Positions 1-6,675 of a stretch of 6,675 nt of DNA are shown here, in pieces; position 1 is the stretch's first letter, and each line of letters starts with the position of its first letter. Position numbers and translations under genes: made by a program. The stretch covers positions 1 through 6,675 of the forward strand of contig JAFZTG010000126.1 of NCBI GenBank assembly GCA_017618935.1, given 5' to 3'. The notes beneath the pieces were generated by a model, which made no database searches, was not told the DNA's origin, and saw nothing but the letters and a program-made list of their open reading frames with translations. This stretch comes from Bacteroidales bacterium. GTDB taxonomy: Bacteria > Bacteroidota > Bacteroidia > Bacteroidales > UBA1715.

Positions 1-942
1 GCCATCGTAGATTATGACAATGTTTTGGGTAAAACGATTGATTAAGATGATTTGTTCTTCGGTGAGCGACGTTCCCGACGATGCCACCACGTTGCAAATT
101 CCTGCCTGATGCATTGAAATTACGTCGGTGTAACCTTCAACTAAAATACATTCGTCTTTTTTTACAATTTCATTCTTGGCGAACGAAATGCCATAGAGCG
201 TCTTACTTTTGTTGTAAACCTCTGATTCTGGTGAATTTACGTATTTTGCGCCTCCTTGCACGTGTTCGTTAGCCGGTGTCATTACACGACCACCAAATCC
301 AATCACGGTTCCGGAAACCGACGTGATGGGAAACATCACGCGTCCGTGAAAACGGTCAGCCTTGTATTTGTCGCCAACGGATGTGAGTCCCACTTTTTGC
401 AGATATTCCAACTTGTAGCCTGCTTTTTCTGCGGCTGTGGTAAAAGCGTCTTTTTTCTGCGGGCTATATCCTAATTGAAATTTTCGTATGGTTTCTTCGG
501 TAAAACCGCGTTCGATGAAATAGGCGAGACCTATGTTTTTTCCTTCTTCGGTTTCCCACATGGTTTTCTGGAAGTATTTTGCCGCAAATTCGTTTACTAT
601 GTTCAAACTTTCCTTAATGTCGCGACGTTGCTTTTCCTCGTCGGTCAGTTCGGTTTCAACAATTTCAACGTGGTATTTTTTCCCTAAATAGCGGATTGCG
701 TCAAAATACGAGCATTTTTCGTGCTCTTTGATAAATGTCACGGCATTTCCCGCCTTGCCACAACCAAAACATTTGTATATTCCTTTTGCAGGCGAAACCA
801 CAAACGACGGAGTCTTTTCGTCGTGAAACGGACAACAGCCTTTGTAATTGCTGCCTGCACGACGCAATGCCACAAAGTCTCCGATGACTTCCTCAACCTT
901 GGAAAGACTTATGATTTTCTCTATCGTATCTTGTGGAATCAT
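1..942 (-). CDS. dnaG: DNA primase DnaG, N-terminal 314 residues (partial, runs off the window edge)
   Basis: DnaG makes the RNA primers for lagging-strand synthesis with the replicative helicase. The translation opens with MIPQDTIEKII and shows the CHC2 zinc finger at C37, H40, C58 and C61 (CPFH...CFGC), spaced as in known primases. The RNA-polymerase basic motif follows at about 196-219 (DRFHGRVMFPI...GFGGR). The TOPRIM domain begins with its catalytic glutamate, E269, in VEGYTDV. The reading frame leaves the window at IVIIYDG, where D313 is the first aspartate of the TOPRIM DxD motif, so the rest of TOPRIM and the helicase-binding domain lie outside. The ATG at 942 gives the usual primase N-terminus directly before the zinc finger and sits about 20 nt from a good -7 element. 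No frameshift or stop is seen. The family assignment is very secure. Confidence 0.97.
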   Translation of the reverse strand, partial: MIPQDTIEKIISLSKVEEVIGDFVALRRAGSNYKGCCPFHDEKTPSFVVSPAKGIYKCFGCGKAGNAVTFIKEHEKCSYFDAIRYLGKKYHVEIVETELTDEEKQRRDIKESLNIVNEFAAKYFQKTMWETEEGKNIGLAYFIERGFTEETIRKFQLGYSPQKKDAFTTAAEKAGYKLEYLQKVGLTSVGDKYKADRFHGRVMFPITSVSGTVIGFGGRVMTPANEHVQGGAKYVNSPESEVYNKSKTLYGISFAKNEIVKKDECILVEGYTDVISMHQAGICNVVASSGTSLTEEQIILINRFTQNIVIIYDG

Positions 943-960
943 TCTACAAAATTAAGTAGG

Positions 961-992
961 CAAATGTAGATATTTGTCTGCTTTTGTAGAAA
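961..992 (-). promoter_or_regulatory. Candidate Bacteroidota-type promoter of dnaG
   Basis: Read on the minus strand, TACATTTG (961-968) matches the -7 consensus TAnnTTTG. A TTTC (989-992), close to the -33 TTTG, lies 20 nt upstream, which is correct spacing. The predicted start of transcription is near 954, leaving a leader of only about 12 nt before the ATG at 942. The leader has no Shine-Dalgarno sequence, which is normal for this phylum. The call rests on motif matching only. Confidence 0.55.
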
Positions 993-997
993 TGAAA

Positions 998-1039
998 TTT
1001 TCGTGCTGATATATAACATACTAAAAATCAGCACGAAAA
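998..1039 (-). terminator. 13-bp perfect inverted repeat between the WYL gene and dnaG (possible terminator)
   Basis: TTTTCGTGCTGAT at 998-1010 is the exact reverse complement of 1027-1039, separated by a 16-nt loop. It begins 23 nt past the stop codon of the WYL gene. In that direction the stem is followed by TTTCATTTC, a broken T-tract, so it could terminate that transcript. The long loop and weak T-tract make it an imperfect intrinsic terminator. It also lies directly upstream of the dnaG promoter, so a protein-binding site is the alternative. The repeat is certain; its role is inferred. Confidence 0.5.
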
Positions 1040-1062
1040 CTTATTAACAATTCTGTAATTGC

Positions 1063-2082
1063 CTAAAATAGAGTAGGTTGCGTGTATGAATCTTGCAACG
1101 ATCTGATTTCGTTCAAGATAGATTTGCGCAACTTTTCAGGTGATTCAACTTTTATTTTTGAACCATACTTGAGAATCTTTTCGGTAAGGTCTTGATTCAC
1201 AATAACTTTTATTTCCAAAAGAGCCTTGTCGAGTCCTGTGTCCGTAATCGTTTGTGTGCTATGAATCGGATGATTCTTGAAATGCTCGATCATATCGGTG
1301 GAAATCTTCAACGAGACAATCGTCGGCTTGGCACTTTCGCCTGGGTGAATACCCACCAAGTATTGGAAATATTCTTCGGGTGTATATTTCGTGTTTTCTA
1401 TGAAATTTATGATTTGTGGCGAAATTGCCGCAATGTCGCTCACCGGCACCACGATAAATTCTGATGAAGGATCTTCCAAACCATAGAGATACCACTCGTT
1501 GTGATATTCTTTCAGAAAATAAGGATGGATAACACGTTGTGTTATTGATTCGTCCTTTTTTCTTATGGTTAGTTCAATTACTTGTTTTTTGATAACTGCA
1601 TCTACTATTTGCTTGAGCCACGAAACGCCTTTGGCAAGTTTCTTTGCCGATTCAAACGCCGCAATAGGGGAGTTTGGCTGTGGATTGATTGCGATAATCG
1701 CCTCAATTTTTTCAATCAGTTTGGTAATGTCGCCCAGATGAGTGTACTGCTTGTATTGCTTGAGCGTGTTTGCAACCTCGGTCAAGTTGTCAATGTCGGG
1801 TTTGCTGAGTTGCATGTTCTTGATGGAAAAATTTTCGTCGGAATATGAATAATTTCCGTCAACACATACAATAGGTGCGTTGTAACCGACAGGTTGTTTT
1901 TCACGCATGAGCGCAATGTCGTACTGAATAGAACGACGGCTCACTTTTTCCACGTTAAATTCGTCGGTCAGTTTGTGAGAAACTTCGTTGATTAAGTCGT
2001 CTAACGTCCATGTTCTTGACGTGTCACGTAAACATTCGTCAATGATACGAAATCGAAAATTTTTTGATTTATGAGCAGGCAT
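1063..2082 (-). CDS. WYL-domain transcriptional regulator with N-terminal winged helix
   Basis: The product is a 339-residue DNA-binding regulator of the HTH-WYL-WCX type. Residues about 8-85 look like the helix-turn-helix/winged region (conserved SRRSIQYDIALMR near 48-60, then NYSYSDENFSI as the wing). Residues about 155-220 form the WYL ligand-sensing domain, with the name-giving W197-Y198-L199 visible in NEWYLYG. Residues about 252-327 fit the WCX dimerisation domain. Length and order are usual for the Bacteroidota branch. The start is placed at the ATG at 2082: the frame stays open upstream, but that extension is low-complexity, unlike the family, and would cross a good promoter. The gene ends in TAG. 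WYL regulators control DNA repair, metabolism or phage-defence loci, and some sense nucleic acids. The target here is not visible; TGCAA repeats over its own promoter hint at autoregulation. Confidence 0.9.
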   Translation of the reverse strand: MPAHKSKNFRFRIIDECLRDTSRTWTLDDLINEVSHKLTDEFNVEKVSRRSIQYDIALMREKQPVGYNAPIVCVDGNYSYSDENFSIKNMQLSKPDIDNLTEVANTLKQYKQYTHLGDITKLIEKIEAIIAINPQPNSPIAAFESAKKLAKGVSWLKQIVDAVIKKQVIELTIRKKDESITQRVIHPYFLKEYHNEWYLYGLEDPSSEFIVVPVSDIAAISPQIINFIENTKYTPEEYFQYLVGIHPGESAKPTIVSLKISTDMIEHFKNHPIHSTQTITDTGLDKALLEIKVIVNQDLTEKILKYGSKIKVESPEKLRKSILNEIRSLQDSYTQPTLF

Positions 2083-2111
2083 ATCAAAAAGATTTAATTC
2101 AACTTTTATTG

Positions 2112-2154
2112 TGCAAATATAGTGCAAAAAATATGCAATGCAAGTAAAATGCAA
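2112..2154. repeat. Array of five TGCAA repeats across the WYL promoter (candidate operator)
   Basis: TGCAA occurs at 2112, 2123, 2134, 2139 and 2150. The first three are spaced exactly 11 bp, and the last two again 11 bp, so within each set they face one side of the helix. A further TGCA lies at 2163. The array covers the -7 and -33 elements of the promoter for the WYL gene. A regulator bound here would block the promoter. Binding by the WYL protein itself is an inference. TTTGCA is common just after -7 elements in this phylum, so the 2112 copy may be promoter-derived. Confidence 0.45.
2114..2144 (-). promoter_or_regulatory. Bacteroidota-type promoter of the WYL regulator gene
   Basis: On the minus strand TATATTTG (2114-2121) is a perfect TAnnTTTG -7 element. 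CTTG (2141-2144), containing the TTG core of the -33 element, lies 19 nt upstream. Transcription should start near 2107, giving a leader of about 25 nt before the ATG at 2082. This supports both the chosen start codon and independent transcription of the WYL gene from the upstream three-gene operon. Confidence 0.7.
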
Positions 2155-2171
2155 CATTTTTTTGCAGACGT

Positions 2172-2195
2172 GACAATATTTCTCGCCGTATTGTC
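2172..2195. repeat. Small inverted repeat in the gap after the pentein-fold gene
   Basis: GACAATA (2172-2178) pairs with TATTGTC (2189-2195) around a 10-nt loop. A shorter GTGCA/TGCAC pair (2202-2218) lies next to it, immediately after the stop codon at 2220. Neither is followed by a T-tract on the minus strand, so neither is a convincing intrinsic terminator for the upstream operon. They may be weak termination or binding sites, or chance. Confidence 0.25.
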
Positions 2196-2219
2196 TGTTT
2201 GGTGCAGTTTTATTGCACG

Positions 2220-2906
2220 TTATTGGGAAATGAAAATGATTCCCCCTCCGTCGTACAATTTTCCTTGGTGGAGTTCTTTTATTTGTAAGGAATGGTCTTG
2301 GATAAATGAACGGATTTTGTCGCCTTCGGAATGGGTTGACAACGAGCCGTTTATGTAGATTGTGTCGCCGAATTTTCCCATGCAGCCGCCTATGAATCCG
2401 TATTTGTAGGGTGGCAGTTGTATGCCTTCGGGCGATATGGGGAGACATTCTAGGTTATATTTCCGTAAGGTTTCATAAATGCCTCGGTCGGAGGTGATGA
2501 ACACGTTTTCGGCTATTTCCAGCAAATTGCAACGGGTGTAGGGCTGGGGGACGGAAATGTAGGTTTTGTTCGGGTTGTGTTCTATGATTGCTGTGTCGGT
2601 TAAGCCATGCTTGTGGATAATATAGTTTCGGGTGACTACGCAATTGTATGGCGTGGAATTGCGTAGATCGCTTCCCACTGCGGTTTTCCCAAATACAAAC
2701 GAGGAAACATGCCGTTTGATTTCCGAAGGCGTGTTCGGGGCAAGAATGGTGACGTCGCCTTGTGTGATAAATATGTCGGGGTGACCGGCTACGGCTTCGT
2801 AGGTGCAGTTTTCCGACAGAAACGGAATGACTGTAAACCGTCTTGCGAGCGTCTCGATTGCTTGCCGTGGACTGCGTGCATCAATAATGGCAATAGGTGA
2901 ATTCAT
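2220..2906 (-). CDS. DUF6873-like protein with pentein (guanidino-modifying-enzyme) fold
   Basis: The protein has 228 residues and unknown function. It shows the marks I associate with DUF6873: YEAVAGHPDIF (36-46), TSDRGIYETL in the middle, GFIGGCMGKFGD (170-181), then NGSLSTH (187-192) and a C-terminal DGGGIIFISQ. The last segment can be aligned by eye with the GGGxHCxT end of penteins such as agmatine deiminase, but the catalytic His-Cys pair is replaced by Ile-Phe. The protein may therefore bind rather than process a guanidino-like ligand. The ATG at 2906 lies inside the end of the radical SAM gene (26-nt overlap), so the two are probably translationally coupled. A longer frame to 2990 exists, but it lies wholly inside the upstream gene and its extra residues do not resemble the family. 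No signal peptide is seen, so it is probably cytoplasmic. Confidence 0.7.
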   Translation of the reverse strand: MNSPIAIIDARSPRQAIETLARRFTVIPFLSENCTYEAVAGHPDIFITQGDVTILAPNTPSEIKRHVSSFVFGKTAVGSDLRNSTPYNCVVTRNYIIHKHGLTDTAIIEHNPNKTYISVPQPYTRCNLLEIAENVFITSDRGIYETLRKYNLECLPISPEGIQLPPYKYGFIGGCMGKFGDTIYINGSLSTHSEGDKIRSFIQDHSLQIKELHQGKLYDGGGIIFISQ

Positions 2907-3894
2907 AGCCGTTGAGTGTTTTGTTGGTGGTGAAAGTGACGTGTTTGTACGATTTGAGCAGTTCGTCCCGATTCTGCGAATTGTAGCCAATGGCGTTGTG
3001 TAGTTCGTTTTCGGAAACGAAGATGTTGATATTCTGGTTTTTGCAAATATTTTGCATTACTGGTTTTAGTCGTTCGTGCCATATATCGGACAGTACCAAT
3101 TCTTTGAAAGACGGGTGGAACGGTCCGGCCAAAAGATATTTGTTTGACGTGAAATCCTTGTTCGGGTGAAGACCGACTTTGAGCACGGTGACGTTTTTTT
3201 CGACGAAAAGCGTGTAGATTCTGCTTGTCCACGTCACGGCTTCGGAAAGCGTGAGGGGTGTATATTTTCCTTGTGTGTAAAGTTTTGCCAACGGCGTGTC
3301 GGCAACTACCAAGGTGGGGTAGATACGGGTGGTTTTTGCCCCGAAGGCAATAATGTCGCGGGCGGTTTGCAGGGCGGTTTCAAGCGTGTCGCCTGGGAGA
3401 CCGATCATCATTTGCAGACCGAGTTGGAACCCATGGGCGTTAATTCGTTCCGAGGCCTTCTGTATGGCGTTTCGGTCGTGTCCGCGTCCCGATAGTTTCA
3501 GTACGGTGTTGTTGGTTGACTGTGCGCCGAGTTCTATATCGGTTACGTGGTAGCGTTTGAGCATACGGAGAATGTCGTCGTCAATGTAATCGGGACGGGT
3601 GGATATTCTGATTCCCGAAACGCTCCCGTTTTCTATAAACGGCTGTGCCACTTGTAGATACGATTCCTGTGTCTCCAATGGCAGACAAGTGAAACTTCCA
3701 CCGAAAAATGCGATTTGAATGTCGTAGTTTTTGGGGATTGTCGCCAAGTTTCGTTCTATAATTGTTTGTGCCTCGTGTGGTGTTGGCACGTTGATCTGCG
3801 AACTGATATGGTTTTGGTTGCAGAATATGCACTGATGCGGACACGCCAGTTGTGGCAGAAAAATCGGTATGTTGGAGTGGCGGAGGTTTTTCAT
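2881..3894 (-). CDS. Elp3-like radical SAM protein of unknown substrate
   Basis: The 337-residue enzyme binds a 4Fe-4S cluster and S-adenosylmethionine. The cluster motif CPHQCIFC supplies C18, C22 and C25 (CxxxCxxC). Further family landmarks are FFGGSFT (63-69, the GGE-like SAM contact), ISTRPD (97-102), ELGAQS (121-126) and MIGLPGDT (163-170). These resemble the radical SAM domain of Elp3/COG1243 and of coproporphyrinogen-oxidase-like enzymes. It lacks the acetyltransferase domain of true Elp3, so tRNA wobble modification should not be assumed. The start codon is 2 nt from the stop of the lipoprotein gene, and the 3' end overlaps the pentein-fold gene, indicating one transcript. The substrate is unknown; the pentein-fold partner is the best clue. 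Confidence 0.9.
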   Translation of the reverse strand: MKNLRHSNIPIFLPQLACPHQCIFCNQNHISSQINVPTPHEAQTIIERNLATIPKNYDIQIAFFGGSFTCLPLETQESYLQVAQPFIENGSVSGIRISTRPDYIDDDILRMLKRYHVTDIELGAQSTNNTVLKLSGRGHDRNAIQKASERINAHGFQLGLQMMIGLPGDTLETALQTARDIIAFGAKTTRIYPTLVVADTPLAKLYTQGKYTPLTLSEAVTWTSRIYTLFVEKNVTVLKVGLHPNKDFTSNKYLLAGPFHPSFKELVLSDIWHERLKPVMQNICKNQNINIFVSENELHNAIGYNSQNRDELLKSYKHVTFTTNKTLNGYEFTYCHY

Positions 3895-3896
3895 TT

Positions 3897-4706
3897 TTAT
3901 CGGATTCTTTTCAATACTCTTGGAGGAATGTTCGTTGTATTGTCTTGGGCGGTCATCAACGAGACGTAGTTTTCATAATATGTTTTAGCCAATTTGTGGT
4001 TTCCTGTCATCCAATAATTATCGGCAAGTCCAAGATTTGCTGCTGTATCTTCTGGAAATTTCATTAAAACCTTTTGTAACAATTGTATAGAATATTGGTA
4101 ACACTTGTTTTCGCAGAGACAGTTTGCCAATTCATTGATTATTGCGACATTGTCAGGCGTTATGCTTTCTTTGCCCAAAATAAAAACAATAGCCAACATC
4201 AGCAGGACTTTTGTGTTATTTCTATTGGTGGATAAAATTTTCTCATAATATGATTTTGTCTTTTCATTTGTTTGTATATCAGTGGTTTCTGTCAGCAGTA
4301 ATTCATTTTTGTCGTAACAAGTGTCGATGCAGAATTCTTCCAATAATTTCCCGCTTCCCGGCACACCGAATAAGGCATAATATTGCCTGGTAGATTCCGT
4401 GGTAAATTTGCAAATTTGTCGGAATGAGCCATTTTCGTTTGCGTAAATATAATCATCTATAAGATAGTTCCAATTATTTCTTTGAGTGCGACTCAATTCT
4501 ATATAATTTTCGTGGCATTTTTTGTCCCAATAGAGAGTATCGTAAAAAACGCCGTCTTTTTCTATTGTTATTGGGCATAGAACGGTGTCAATTGATAACG
4601 AGGTGGAAGTGATACGTATTTTTTCACAAAACCCGCTGTCGGTTGATTTGCACGAAACAAAGGCAACGGAAGCGAGCAGTAGTATTTTTGCAACAGATTT
4701 TGTCAT
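3897..4706 (-). CDS. Predicted lipoprotein with C-terminal TPR-like repeats
   Basis: The product has 269 residues from the ATG at 4706. MTKSVAKILLLASVAFVSC is a signal peptide ending in a lipobox-like AFVSC, so C19 should be lipidated and the protein anchored outside the inner membrane. KSTD after the cysteine recalls Bacteroidota surface lipoproteins, but export to the surface is not certain. Residues about 198-255 contain helical repeats of TPR type (IQLLQKVLMKFPEDTAANLGLA...GNHKLAKTYYENYV). The middle section (20-160) is not recognised. Nine further cysteines follow C19, an unusual number. A TTG 21 nt upstream would add seven residues, but the ATG places the basic residues correctly. It is the first gene of a tight operon with the radical SAM and pentein-fold genes. 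A -7-like TATTTTTG lies at 4725-4732 on the minus strand, without a clear -33. Confidence 0.8.
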   Translation of the reverse strand: MTKSVAKILLLASVAFVSCKSTDSGFCEKIRITSTSLSIDTVLCPITIEKDGVFYDTLYWDKKCHENYIELSRTQRNNWNYLIDDYIYANENGSFRQICKFTTESTRQYYALFGVPGSGKLLEEFCIDTCYDKNELLLTETTDIQTNEKTKSYYEKILSTNRNNTKVLLMLAIVFILGKESITPDNVAIINELANCLCENKCYQYSIQLLQKVLMKFPEDTAANLGLADNYWMTGNHKLAKTYYENYVSLMTAQDNTTNIPPRVLKRIR

Positions 4707-4724
4707 GTTTGAATGATTGTTGCT

Positions 4725-4774
4725 CAAAAATAAAAAGATTTCTTTTACTTTTTGGCTTTTGCGGGAGAAAGTAT
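4725..4774 (+). repeat. Copy 1 of a ~50-bp imperfect direct repeat flanking the AbiE cassette
   Basis: This segment aligns by eye with 6539-6588 at about 40 of 50 columns, with two one-base gaps. The shared core runs from CAAAAATAA through ACTTTTTG to GCG and AAAGTA. The copy-2 hairpin is degenerate here: ACTTTTTGGC opposite GGGAGAAAGT with mismatches. It lies 5' of the lipoprotein gene and about 120 bp before the AbiE start. It could be a dispersed intergenic repeat or a boundary of the cassette. Confidence 0.55.
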
Positions 4775-4836: not shown

Positions 4837-4892
4837 CAAAATAATTCATATATAACACTTTTTTTATTATATTTGCACCAAAATAATTCATA
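4837..4892 (+). repeat. Perfect 14-bp direct repeat around the AbiE promoter (candidate AbiEi operator)
   Basis: CAAAATAATTCATA occurs at 4837-4850 and again at 4879-4892, exactly 42 bp apart, or about four helical turns. The second copy ends against the ATG at 4893, and the pair brackets the -7 element at 4868-4875. A third TAATTCA core sits at 4832, 10 bp before the next core at 4842. AbiEi proteins studied elsewhere repress their own operon by binding promoter repeats (inverted in the streptococcal case). Binding here is inferred from position. Confidence 0.55.
4868..4875 (+). promoter_or_regulatory. -7 element of the AbiE operon promoter
   Basis: TATATTTG matches TAnnTTTG exactly and, like the WYL promoter, continues as GCAC. 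The ATG is 17 nt further on, so the leader should be only about 11 nt, with no Shine-Dalgarno sequence. No TTTG or TTG is found at the usual -33 distance (about 4841-4850); instead one copy of the 14-bp repeat occupies that place. Transcription may be weak or factor-dependent. Confidence 0.6.
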
Positions 4893-5696
4893 ATGACATT
4901 AAAAAAATGGATTAACGACAGAGCCATTCACGGCTTTCCTACATTTTCTATTGAAGATGTTCGAAAGATTGGAATGTATTCTTCTGAACAGATTCTTCAG
5001 AACGAACTTTCTCGACTTTGTGCAAACAAGACCATAGCAAATGTCTATCGTGGATTCTACGTCATTATGCCAATTCACTATGTCCTACGGGGTTCCGTTC
5101 CCGCGCCATACTACATTGACCAGTTGATGACCTATCTTGGCAAACCATACTACGTGTGTATGTCAAGTGCGGCAGAAATGTTGGGAGCCGCTCATCAGCG
5201 TCCGCAGGAATTTTCTATAATGACAACATTTCCCAAGCGTCGGGTTGTTTCAACACGCAATGTAACAATAAACTGGTTCTATCGAGAACAACTTCCCGAA
5301 GAAGCACTCATTACCAAAAATACAGAAACGGGAACCATTCGTGTTTCCAACCCTCTGTTGACGGTAGCCGATTTGGTTCAGTATCAACAACATGTGGGAG
5401 GTTTGTCGCGTGTGGCGACAATACTCGCGGAATTGTCGGAACAAATTGACATAGAAACACAATTTACACCGCTCATTCCATACGTAAAAAAAGCGGTTTG
5501 GCAACGGCTTGGTTTTTTGTTCGACAATGTTTTAGAAGAAAAGGAACTGGCAGATGTACTCTACGAGCAATTACGAGCCTCAGCAAAAAACATGCTGTAT
5601 GTTCCGCTCAGTACCTCGGCAAATAACACCACAACAGAAAGAGATTCTAAATGGAAAATTAACATTAACATTCAAATAGAAACCGACGATTTATGA
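4893..5696 (+). CDS. AbiEi-family antitoxin/transcriptional regulator (type IV toxin-antitoxin)
   Basis: The 267-residue protein resembles the AbiEi/COG5340 family, the predicted regulator half of an abortive-infection pair. Residues 1-60 form the N-terminal winged helix (FSIEDVRKIGMYSSEQILQN, then the turn at YRGFYVIMP, 52-60). The antitoxin body includes the family-typical YYVCMSSAAEMLGAAHQRPQ (86-105). In known systems AbiEi represses its operon and counteracts the AbiEii nucleotidyltransferase without a stable complex. The ATG at 4893 follows a promoter closely. The stop overlaps the toxin start as ATGA, the usual coupled arrangement. The frame is intact although the toxin is broken, the order of loss expected when an antitoxin is harmless alone. 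It is transcribed opposite to all the upstream genes. No gene symbol is transferred because similarity to the lactococcal or streptococcal proteins cannot be measured here. Confidence 0.85.
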   Translation: MTLKKWINDRAIHGFPTFSIEDVRKIGMYSSEQILQNELSRLCANKTIANVYRGFYVIMPIHYVLRGSVPAPYYIDQLMTYLGKPYYVCMSSAAEMLGAAHQRPQEFSIMTTFPKRRVVSTRNVTINWFYREQLPEEALITKNTETGTIRVSNPLLTVADLVQYQQHVGGLSRVATILAELSEQIDIETQFTPLIPYVKKAVWQRLGFLFDNVLEEKELADVLYEQLRASAKNMLYVPLSTSANNTTTERDSKWKININIQIETDDL

Positions 5697-6496
5697 TTAA
5701 CAGAGCCGCAATACAACAATGGAGTGAACACGCTCCATGGATTGACAATGCCCAAATTGAGCAGGATTTGATTATATGCCGTGCCTTGGTTGCCATATTC
5801 AGCGATGTGTTCTTGGCTTCGCAATTGGCTTTTCGTGGAGGAACAGCATTGCACAAACTTTATTTGTCGCCACAACCACGTTACAGCTAGGACATTGATT
5901 TGGTTCAAATCAATCCGGGACCAATAAAACCTATTCTGTACCGACTTGGCGAAGTGCTTGATTTTTTGCCCGAAAGGGTTACGAAACAAAAGCGATATAA
6001 CAATACGATGTTTTTCCGTATTGAATCTGAAATCCCGCCTACCATTTCAATACGGTTAAAAGTGGAAATCAACTGCTTTGAGCATTTCAACGTTCTTGGA
6101 TTGACAAAAGTCCCGTTTCGTGTGGAAAATTCTTGGTTTACAGGCGAAACAGAACTTACCACCTATCATTTTGAAGAATTGTTGGGAACAAAACTCCGCG
6201 CCCTCTATCAACGGAAAAAAGGTCGTGACCTTTTTGACCTGTATATTGCCCTGCAGCGAAAACAGGTTGATGTGGAAAAAGTTTTACTCTGCTATAAAAA
6301 ATATATGGAATTTGTTGTTGGTAAAGTCCCTTCATACAAGCAGTTTGTAAACAATCTTTCGGAGAAAATGAACGACACGGAGTTTACCAACGACATGCAA
6401 ACCTTATTACGACCAAACATTTCGTTTAATCCTACTGAAGCATATCAACTTGTTTACGACACATTTATAGACAAAATGGTAGGACGAAGAGATTAG
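5693..6496 (+). pseudogene. AbiEii-family nucleotidyltransferase toxin interrupted by an in-frame TAG
   Basis: This is the toxin half of the AbiE pair, a DNA polymerase beta-like nucleotidyltransferase. In known members it blocks growth by modifying tRNA 3' ends. The frame of 267 codons before the stop matches family length. It shows FRGGTALHKLY (47-57), then RYS-stop-DIDLV: codon 66 (5888-5890) is TAG where the family normally has glutamate (RYSEDIDL), so GAG to TAG is a single change. D67 and D69, the catalytic pair, follow. Downstream, LKVEIN (third acidic residue, E125) and TKLRALYQRKKGRDLFDLY (166-184; K167, R178, D179, D182) are all intact, and the frame continues to its TAG stop at 6494. 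Translation would give only 65 residues without any catalytic acid. A TTG at 5900 could restart but would miss both aspartates. The remaining sequence is undamaged, so the change is recent, is an error, or is bypassed. Confidence 0.85.
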
Positions 6497-6538
6497 TGCT
6501 GGAACGAAAAAGTTTCAAAATCAAAAATGTTTGGAGGT

Positions 6539-6588
6539 CAAAAATAAGAAGATTTTCTTTACTTTTTGTCTTCAGCGACAAAAAGTAA
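6539..6588 (+). repeat. Copy 2 of the flanking repeat, containing a perfect 12-bp hairpin
   Basis: This is the downstream partner of 4725-4774, in the same orientation, 42 nt after the toxin stop. It contains TTACTTTTTGTC (6559-6570) and its exact complement at 6577-6588, around the loop TTCAGC. A stem this strong after an operon could end transcription or protect mRNA 3' ends. However, it is followed by CAAAAACC rather than a T-tract, so it is not a standard intrinsic terminator. A dispersed palindromic intergenic element is the alternative I favour. Confidence 0.6.
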
Positions 6589-6599
6589 CAAAAACCGCC

Positions 6600-6661
6600 G
6601 TCGACGCCACATCTTCGCTAAAAAACAGTTCATTCCGCTAAACTCTCGAAATGGCGCCGAC
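6600..6661. repeat. G+C-richer inverted repeat at the window end
   Basis: GTCGACGCCA (6600-6609) pairs with TGGCGCCGAC (6652-6661) with one mismatch across a 42-nt loop. Inside the loop CGCTAAA appears twice (6616-6622 and 6636-6642). The segment is richer in G+C than the AbiE genes before it. No gene is supported in 6497-6675. It may belong to the same dispersed element as the hairpin just upstream, or be the edge of a neighbouring unit. Confidence 0.3.
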
Positions 6662-6675
6662 ACACAACCCACGCC

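What the first reader, a model, noticed from the sequence alone, without database searches (positions are those of the whole stretch)
5888..5890. Amber codon exactly at the catalytic motif of an otherwise intact AbiEii toxin
The toxin frame is open for 267 codons except for TAG at codon 66, directly before D67 of the DxD motif, where the family has glutamate. All other motifs and the length are preserved, and the coupled antitoxin is intact. The simplest reading is a recent GAG-to-TAG mutation that disarmed the toxin. Readthrough or conditional suppression, for example by a suppressor tRNA or a phage that recodes TAG, would turn it into a switchable toxin, which would be new. Stop-codon reassignment in the host is unlikely: both the WYL gene and the toxin frame end at TAG where the families end.
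Basis: partly seen in the sequence, partly recalled or inferred. Interest (0 to 1): 0.7.

Follow-up and report, generated by a model that had tools for sequence, protein, structure and literature searches.

The report
Recently broken AbiEii toxin gene
A bacterium, probably of the order Bacteroidales, carries a common toxin-antitoxin pair whose toxin gene is cut short by a single stop codon in the catalytic motif; the evidence points to an ordinary, recent loss of the toxin rather than a switchable one.

Summary
Window 5693-6496(+) is a 267-codon AbiEii toxin frame with one in-frame TAG (5888-5890, codon 66) directly before D67 of motif II; the coupled AbiEi is intact. The site is glutamate in 120 of 120 listed homologues and 80 of 80 relatives read as DNA.

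The exotic readings find no support. The window's WYL gene ends at TAG where its 96% identical orthologue in G697 ends at TAA. Two inferred genus-mates have RF1 and none of their 37 + 37 scored tRNA hits has a CUA anticodon. No relative read shares the stop. Landing on a conserved codon is not improbable (39 of 102 eligible codons). The hairpin after the stop is largely coding constraint.

Two distant relatives carry another single stop beside an intact antitoxin. The pair looks like an acquired accessory module, absent at this site in G697. The rest of the toxin shows no clear decay, so the stop is recent or an assembly error. Own genome and reads were unavailable. Interest is low.

The parts
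4868..4875 (+). TATATTTG element, 17 nt before the AbiEi start codon; TATATTTGCACCAAAA is kept upstream of the antitoxin in 13 of the 16 relatives printed. It resembles the Bacteroidota -7 promoter element TAnnTTTG (consensus recalled, from no call)
   Evidence: 25 relatives examined, 16 printed; counted by eye
4893..5696 (+). AbiEi antitoxin, intact, 267 aa, ends TGA overlapping the toxin start (ATGA)
   Evidence: Pfam PF09407 E 1.2e-22; PADLOC AbiEi PDLC02282 E 3.8e-100 over residues 1-266
5693..6496 (+). AbiEii toxin frame (267 codons plus TAG), interrupted at codon 66
5837..5842 (+). Motif I glycines G49-G50
   Evidence: motif definition from passages of PMC3985639
5879..5881 (+). Motif II arginine R63
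5888..5890 (+). In-frame TAG, codon 66; relatives have glutamate here
5891..5899 (+). Motif II D67-I68-D69, downstream of the stop and so absent from the 65-aa product
5894..5914 (+). Perfect 9-bp hairpin 3 nt after the stop; a near-palindrome encoded by the conserved residues IDLVQIN, present with 7-9 of 9 pairs (G-U allowed) in 50 of 80 relatives that have no stop
6191..6214 (+). Motif III KLRALYQR (residues 167-174)
6224..6238 (+). Motif IV RDLFD (residues 178-182)

Best explanation
This is an ordinary AbiE (type IV) toxin-antitoxin operon, carried as an accessory module by an apparently uncultured Bacteroidales genome, in which one recent nonsense substitution ended the toxin after 65 residues. 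Shown: the stop, the intact antitoxin, the undamaged remainder of the frame, and conserved glutamate at the site in relatives. Inferred: termination at UAG by RF1 leaves a 65-aa stub without D67, D69 and motifs III and IV, which has no nucleotidyltransferase activity; the antitoxin is left as an orphan that may still repress its promoter or protect against a related incoming AbiE; and the lesion is too young for further decay.
For: Frame and lesion. Glutamate at the site in 120 of 120 listed homologues and 80 of 80 DNA loci. TAG is a stop in the inferred genus: WYL ends TAG in the window and TAA at the same place in G697 (96% identical protein); 21 of 107 mechanical ORFs of at least 200 aa in fetched G526/G697 stretches end in TAG; RF1 is above its cut-off in 2 of 2 genus-mates. 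No CUA anticodon among the 37 tRNA hits of G526 or the 37 of G697 (there 150 of 169 first-look candidates were scored). Precedents beside an AbiEi without stops: L123 (TGA at column 49, motif I glycine) and L122 (TAA at column 117, on a 4.8-Mb contig); L124 has several stops and no AbiEi match in the stretch fetched. Loss is sufficient: D67 and D69 mutants of S. agalactiae AbiEii are non-toxic (passages of PMC3985639). Recent: 1 odd residue in 135 conserved columns (median of 120 homologues 1), and median toxin pN/pS against 34 relatives 0.102 versus 0.082 among the relatives. Accessory: G697 keeps colinear flanks but has no AbiE at this site; 6 of 7 genus genomes lack a close AbiEii.
Against: The rest of the toxin looks constrained, which an expressed readthrough product would also produce. 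The window toxin carries more private residues than the median homologue (5 against 1; 20 of 120 have at least 5) and a slightly higher pN/pS, so a short relaxed period fits but is not proved. The window's own genome, reads and same-species strains were not available, so an assembly error is not excluded, and the host genus is inferred from flanking genes. No copy of the same species with or without the stop was found.
Confidence: 0.86

Rival explanations
1. Sequencing or assembly error: the real genome has a sense codon at codon 66 and an ordinary intact AbiE operon.
For: Single-base lesion in an otherwise undamaged frame. The window runs into a dispersed repeat (6500-6675, up to 98% identical copies elsewhere in the inferred genus), which suggests the end of a metagenome contig.
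Against: No direct evidence. Real single-stop copies exist in relatives, one on a 4.8-Mb contig, so no error is needed.
Confidence: 0.09
2. Conditional toxin: UAG is read through or suppressed, for instance by a tRNA of a TAG-recoding phage, so the toxin is made only then.
For: The downstream frame is under constraint; a perfect 9-bp hairpin starts 3 nt after the stop; TAG-recoding gut phages exist (starts of the abstracts of PMC9523058 and PMC11210395, seen in search listings); in-frame stops in bacterial genes with dN/dS below 1 are reported (abstract and section 2.1 of PMC7918605).
Against: The stop is shared by 0 of 80 close relatives and 0 of 28 further, partly overlapping loci; 120 of 120 listed proteins have glutamate. 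No CUA tRNA among those scored in two genus-mates, and RF1 is present. The hairpin follows from conserved codons (all 9 pairs about 6% of the time by column codon frequencies; 50 of 80 stop-free relatives have 7-9 of 9 pairs), and the 110 nt after the stop fold little better than shuffles (z -0.87). The other interrupted near-full-length copies examined use TGA or TAA. Glutamate is invariant at the site, so it is unknown whether another residue would work.
Confidence: 0.03
3. TAG is reassigned to an amino acid in the host.
For: None beyond the in-frame TAG.
Against: The toxin frame ends at TAG at the usual family length; WYL ends at TAG where its orthologue in G697 ends at TAA. RF1 present and no CUA tRNA among those scored in two genus-mates.
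Confidence: 0.005
4. Re-initiation after the stop makes a C-terminal fragment (for example from TTG 5900, 198 aa) with some retained role.
For: In-frame start codons follow the stop. C-terminal 186-aa AbiEii proteins starting at residue 82 are in the protein database: P0125, P0126, P0128, P0129, P0131.
Against: Such a fragment lacks motifs I and II, needed for toxicity in S. agalactiae AbiEii (passages of PMC3985639). Any frame broken in the first 81 codons would give the same database entries.
Confidence: 0.015

Closest known systems
AbiE (AbiEi/AbiEii) type IV toxin-antitoxin, S. agalactiae type (PMC3985639, passages seen)
   Same: Bicistronic order antitoxin then toxin; motif I G49/G50, motif II R63, D67, D69 at the same residue numbers; motifs III and IV; AbiEi family antitoxin
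   Different: The toxin frame has a nonsense codon at 66, so D67, D69 and motifs III and IV are not made
Intact AbiE operons of Prevotella and other Bacteroidales (L001-L034 here)
   Same: Toxin 76-88% identical, antitoxin up to 79%, similar promoter-proximal sequence, same overlap of the two genes in the best-matching ones listed
   Different: No in-frame stop; no matching chromosomal neighbours
Relatives with one premature stop and an antitoxin without stops (L122, L123)
   Same: Single stop in an otherwise full-length AbiEii frame beside AbiEi
   Different: Different stop codons (TAA, TGA) at other positions (columns 117, 49), in distant members (50-53% identity)
Orphan antitoxins of decayed TA pairs (PMC7192599, passages seen)
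   Same: Antitoxin found without its toxin, including type IV groups
   Different: That survey is of Klebsiella pneumoniae and has no occurrence of the word AbiE in its main text; here the toxin frame is still almost entire

Membership tests
AbiEii toxin (PF08843 / DUF1814) | Sequence match to the family profile | tested here: met
   Both pieces above the Pfam cut-off (26.5 and 78.6 bits against 22.5); PADLOC PDLC02294 1-65 and 67-260 of 260
AbiEii toxin (PF08843 / DUF1814) | Motifs I-IV encoded in the frame | tested here: met
   positions; motif definitions from passages of PMC3985639
AbiEii toxin (PF08843 / DUF1814) | Continuous reading frame giving one protein with motifs I-IV | tested here: not met
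   TAG at codon 66: this copy is a disrupted member, not a working toxin gene
AbiEii toxin (PF08843 / DUF1814) | Toxic when expressed alone | not testable with these tools
   Needs expression
AbiE type IV toxin-antitoxin operon | Antitoxin AbiEi directly upstream, overlapping or adjacent | tested here: met
   AbiEi 4893-5696, ATGA overlap
AbiE type IV toxin-antitoxin operon | Antitoxin neutralises toxin and represses the operon | not testable with these tools
   Needs experiment
Programmed stop-codon readthrough gene | Stop codon conserved among orthologues | tested here: not met
   0 of 80 loci, 0 of 28 further, partly overlapping loci; no copy from the same species was available
Programmed stop-codon readthrough gene | Cognate suppressor tRNA in the host | tested here: inconclusive
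   None among the tRNA hits of two incomplete genus-mate genomes; own genome not held

The most novel reading that the evidence does not exclude
A phage-triggered toxin: UAG at codon 66 keeps AbiEii off in healthy cells, and infection by a phage that brings a UAG-decoding tRNA (as gut phages with code 15 are thought to do) lets ribosomes pass it and arms the toxin against that phage.
Probability: 0.02. Interest if true: 0.8.

Novelty: already known. Interest (0 to 1): 0.1.

Why it matters
As it stands it matters little: one more toxin gene of an accessory toxin-antitoxin pair lost by a point mutation while the antitoxin remains. Two distant relatives with other single stops beside antitoxins without stops suggest that loss of the toxin first, with the antitoxin kept, recurs in this family, as the logic of such pairs predicts. 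If the switch reading were true it would be a defence that senses phage recoding, but nothing found here favours it over decay.

Tried and rejected
Position as a signal: rejected. Of 266 other codons, 101 are one substitution from a stop and 38 of those lie at columns at least 99% conserved.

Hairpin after the stop as a recoding element: looked promising (9 bp; one of only two perfect hairpins of at least 9 bp with a loop of 3-8 in the window), rejected because the same near-palindrome is encoded in stop-free relatives and the local fold is not unusual. Against this rejection: the window's stem is the only one of the 81 with 9 Watson-Crick pairs (the 80 relatives have at most 8, or 9 with G-U in three).

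Direct repeat CAAAATAATTCATA at 4837-4850 and 4879-4892 as a conserved operator: not seen in the 16 relatives printed (7 of 25 have some direct repeat of at least 8 nt).

Flags of internal stops in G615 and G358: tblastn on the fetched DNA shows no stop within the aligned 262 residues, so I counted only L122, L123 and L124 as interrupted, i.e. 3 of the 41 near-full-length rows. L124 is flagged with 4 TAA and shows 3 stops in the alignment. Partial matches that carry stops (G489 with 1 TAG, G533, G635, G462) were not examined and are left out of the count.

Plasmid and phage collections: no plasmid match; two distant, unannotated phage-labelled records; no near match of the whole window to phages. 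Solved structures: no sequence match for the C-terminal piece at E up to 1. Rfam: none at gathering scores. Sigma-70-type promoter scan: 2 sites against 4.4 expected, no help.

Not resolved: whether the 186-aa C-terminal fragments in the protein database are other broken copies; their DNA was not fetched. A radical SAM protein 95% identical to the window's is in the protein database (P0141), so a near relative of the host exists there, but its genome could not be reached.

Full report
What is there. The window holds, on the minus strand, dnaG (5' part), a WYL regulator, a DUF6873 gene, a radical SAM gene and a TPR gene, and on the plus strand an AbiEi antitoxin (4893-5696) followed by an AbiEii frame (5693-6496). 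The AbiEii frame is interrupted by TAG at 5888-5890, codon 66. The piece before the stop matches PADLOC AbiEii PDLC02294 at positions 1-65 and the piece after it at 67-260 of 260, so a single position is missing. AbiEi is full length.

The site in relatives. Of the 8000 scored homologues the best 120 were listed, and all 120 have glutamate at column 66, with D67 and D69 invariant. That database holds predicted proteins, so copies with a stop would be missed. I therefore read DNA: of 254 relatives found in genome contigs the best 80 were kept, and 80 of 80 have glutamate there with no internal stop; one (L053) appears frameshifted near residue 209. Twenty-eight further loci, partly overlapping with these and including two fetches of one gene, also all have glutamate.

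Is the place special? A hundred and one other codons of the frame are one substitution from a stop, and 38 of those lie at columns at least 99% conserved. A random nonsense change therefore hits such a residue about 38% of the time. The catalytic position adds colour, not evidence.

How old is the lesion? The window toxin departs from consensus at 1 of 135 strongly conserved columns (M82L), the same as the median of 120 homologues, and has 5 private residues (median 1; 20 of 120 have as many or more). Its pN/pS against 34 relatives has a median of 0.102, against 0.082 for 530 pairs among the relatives with pS over 0.4; after the stop the figures are 0.121 and 0.095. The antitoxin (29 relatives) has 0.184 against 0.225. 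Synonymous differences are near saturation (pS about 0.8), so most of the divergence accumulated under constraint and the stop is young, or is not real.

Does the host read TAG as a stop? The window's own genome is not held. A genus with seven genomes was found through the flanking genes; that the window belongs to it, and that the order is Bacteroidales, is inferred from DNA identity and from the record titles. Member G697 is colinear over window 1-3922 (86% DNA identity, dnaG 94% and WYL 96% protein identity). The WYL gene ends at TAG in the window and at TAA at the same place in G697. RF1 is present above its cut-off in both genus-mates examined. All 37 tRNA hits of G526 and all 37 of G697 were typed and none has anticodon CUA. 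In G697 150 of 169 first-look candidates were scored, and both assemblies seem incomplete (no alanine or isoleucine tRNA appears in these outputs), so a missed tRNA is possible. In fetched stretches of these genomes 21 of 107 mechanical ORFs of at least 200 aa end in TAG.

A recoding signal? A perfect 9-bp hairpin starts 3 nt after the stop. It is the near-palindrome encoded by the conserved residues IDLVQIN: 50 of 80 stop-free relatives form 7 to 9 of the 9 pairs with G-U allowed (3 form all 9; none has 9 Watson-Crick pairs as the window has), and sampling codons by column gives all 9, G-U allowed, about 6% of the time. The 110 nt after the stop have a folding z-score of -0.87.

Precedents. 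In a survey of 393 genomes of the order, 41 near-full-length AbiEii matches in 40 genomes were listed, five flagged with stops. After fetching these, two prove not to be interrupted within the aligned residues and three are: L122 (TAA at column 117, on a 4.8-Mb contig), L123 (TGA at column 49, the first glycine of motif I) and L124 (stops at columns 21, 172 and 173). L122 and L123 sit beside AbiEi without stops; no AbiEi match was found in the stretch of L124. So single-stop loss of the toxin with the antitoxin kept is found elsewhere in the family, with all three stop codons if the window is counted, which no TAG-specific mechanism explains. Orphan antitoxins, including type IV groups, are reported for Klebsiella (PMC7192599, passages).

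Mobility. The nearest toxin relatives carry record titles of Prevotella and other Bacteroidales, and no alignment at E 1e-10 or better between the window and the 80 loci lay outside the AbiE pair and its immediate upstream (about 4838-6496). Only 1 of 7 genus genomes (G696) has a close AbiEii, and it is less similar (68%) than the Prevotella ones. In G697 the site beside the TPR gene holds another reading frame. The pair therefore looks like an acquired accessory module. It shares its promoter-proximal sequence with relatives (TATATTTGCACCAAAA in 13 of 16 printed).

Function. In the S. agalactiae protein the residues are numbered alike, and substitution of R63, D67 or D69, or of the motif I, III or IV residues tested, abolishes toxicity, G50A excepted (passages of PMC3985639). 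A 65-residue stub lacks D67, D69 and everything after, so loss of function is the expected result (inference).

Verdict. Observation confirmed; best read as a recent loss-of-function mutation in an accessory AbiE toxin, with an assembly error the main rival. Belinky et al. (PMC7918605, abstract and section 2.1 read) report that in-frame stops are widespread in bacterial genes, tend to persist for a short evolutionary time, and keep dN/dS below 1; that leaves readthrough open in principle, and low dN/dS alone, as here, does not decide between youth and readthrough. No conserved stop, suppressor tRNA or convincing signal supports it here.

Noticed in passing
window 6500-6675: The downstream flank is a dispersed repeat found many times in genomes of the inferred genus (up to 98% identity in G526) and contains a 12-bp hairpin (6559-6588); a 62-nt stretch at 6526-6587 is 79% identical to 4712-4773, so the AbiE pair sits between two related repeat pieces, which may relate to its insertion or simply be where the contig ends.
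   Followed up: partly
L123, toxin column 49: A distant relative has its own single in-frame stop (TGA) at the first glycine of motif I, beside an AbiEi without stops: an independent case of the same kind.
   Followed up: yes
P0125, P0126, P0128, P0129, P0131: Five separate database clusters of 186-aa AbiEii C-terminal fragments all begin at residue 82; they could be further copies broken in the first 81 codons.
   Followed up: no
L173 (G697) 2078-2433 versus window 3895-4759: The TPR gene next to the AbiE pair is shortened in G697: a stretch matching window about 3923-4433 is missing although the flanks are 86-93% identical.
   Followed up: partly
window 2223-2990: The DUF6873 gene is much less conserved than its neighbours (69% protein identity to G697, against 86-96% for radical SAM, dnaG and WYL).
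   Followed up: no
window 4837-4892: A perfect 14-nt direct repeat CAAAATAATTCATA flanks the promoter-like element and abuts the AbiEi start codon; it was not seen in the 16 relatives printed.
   Followed up: partly
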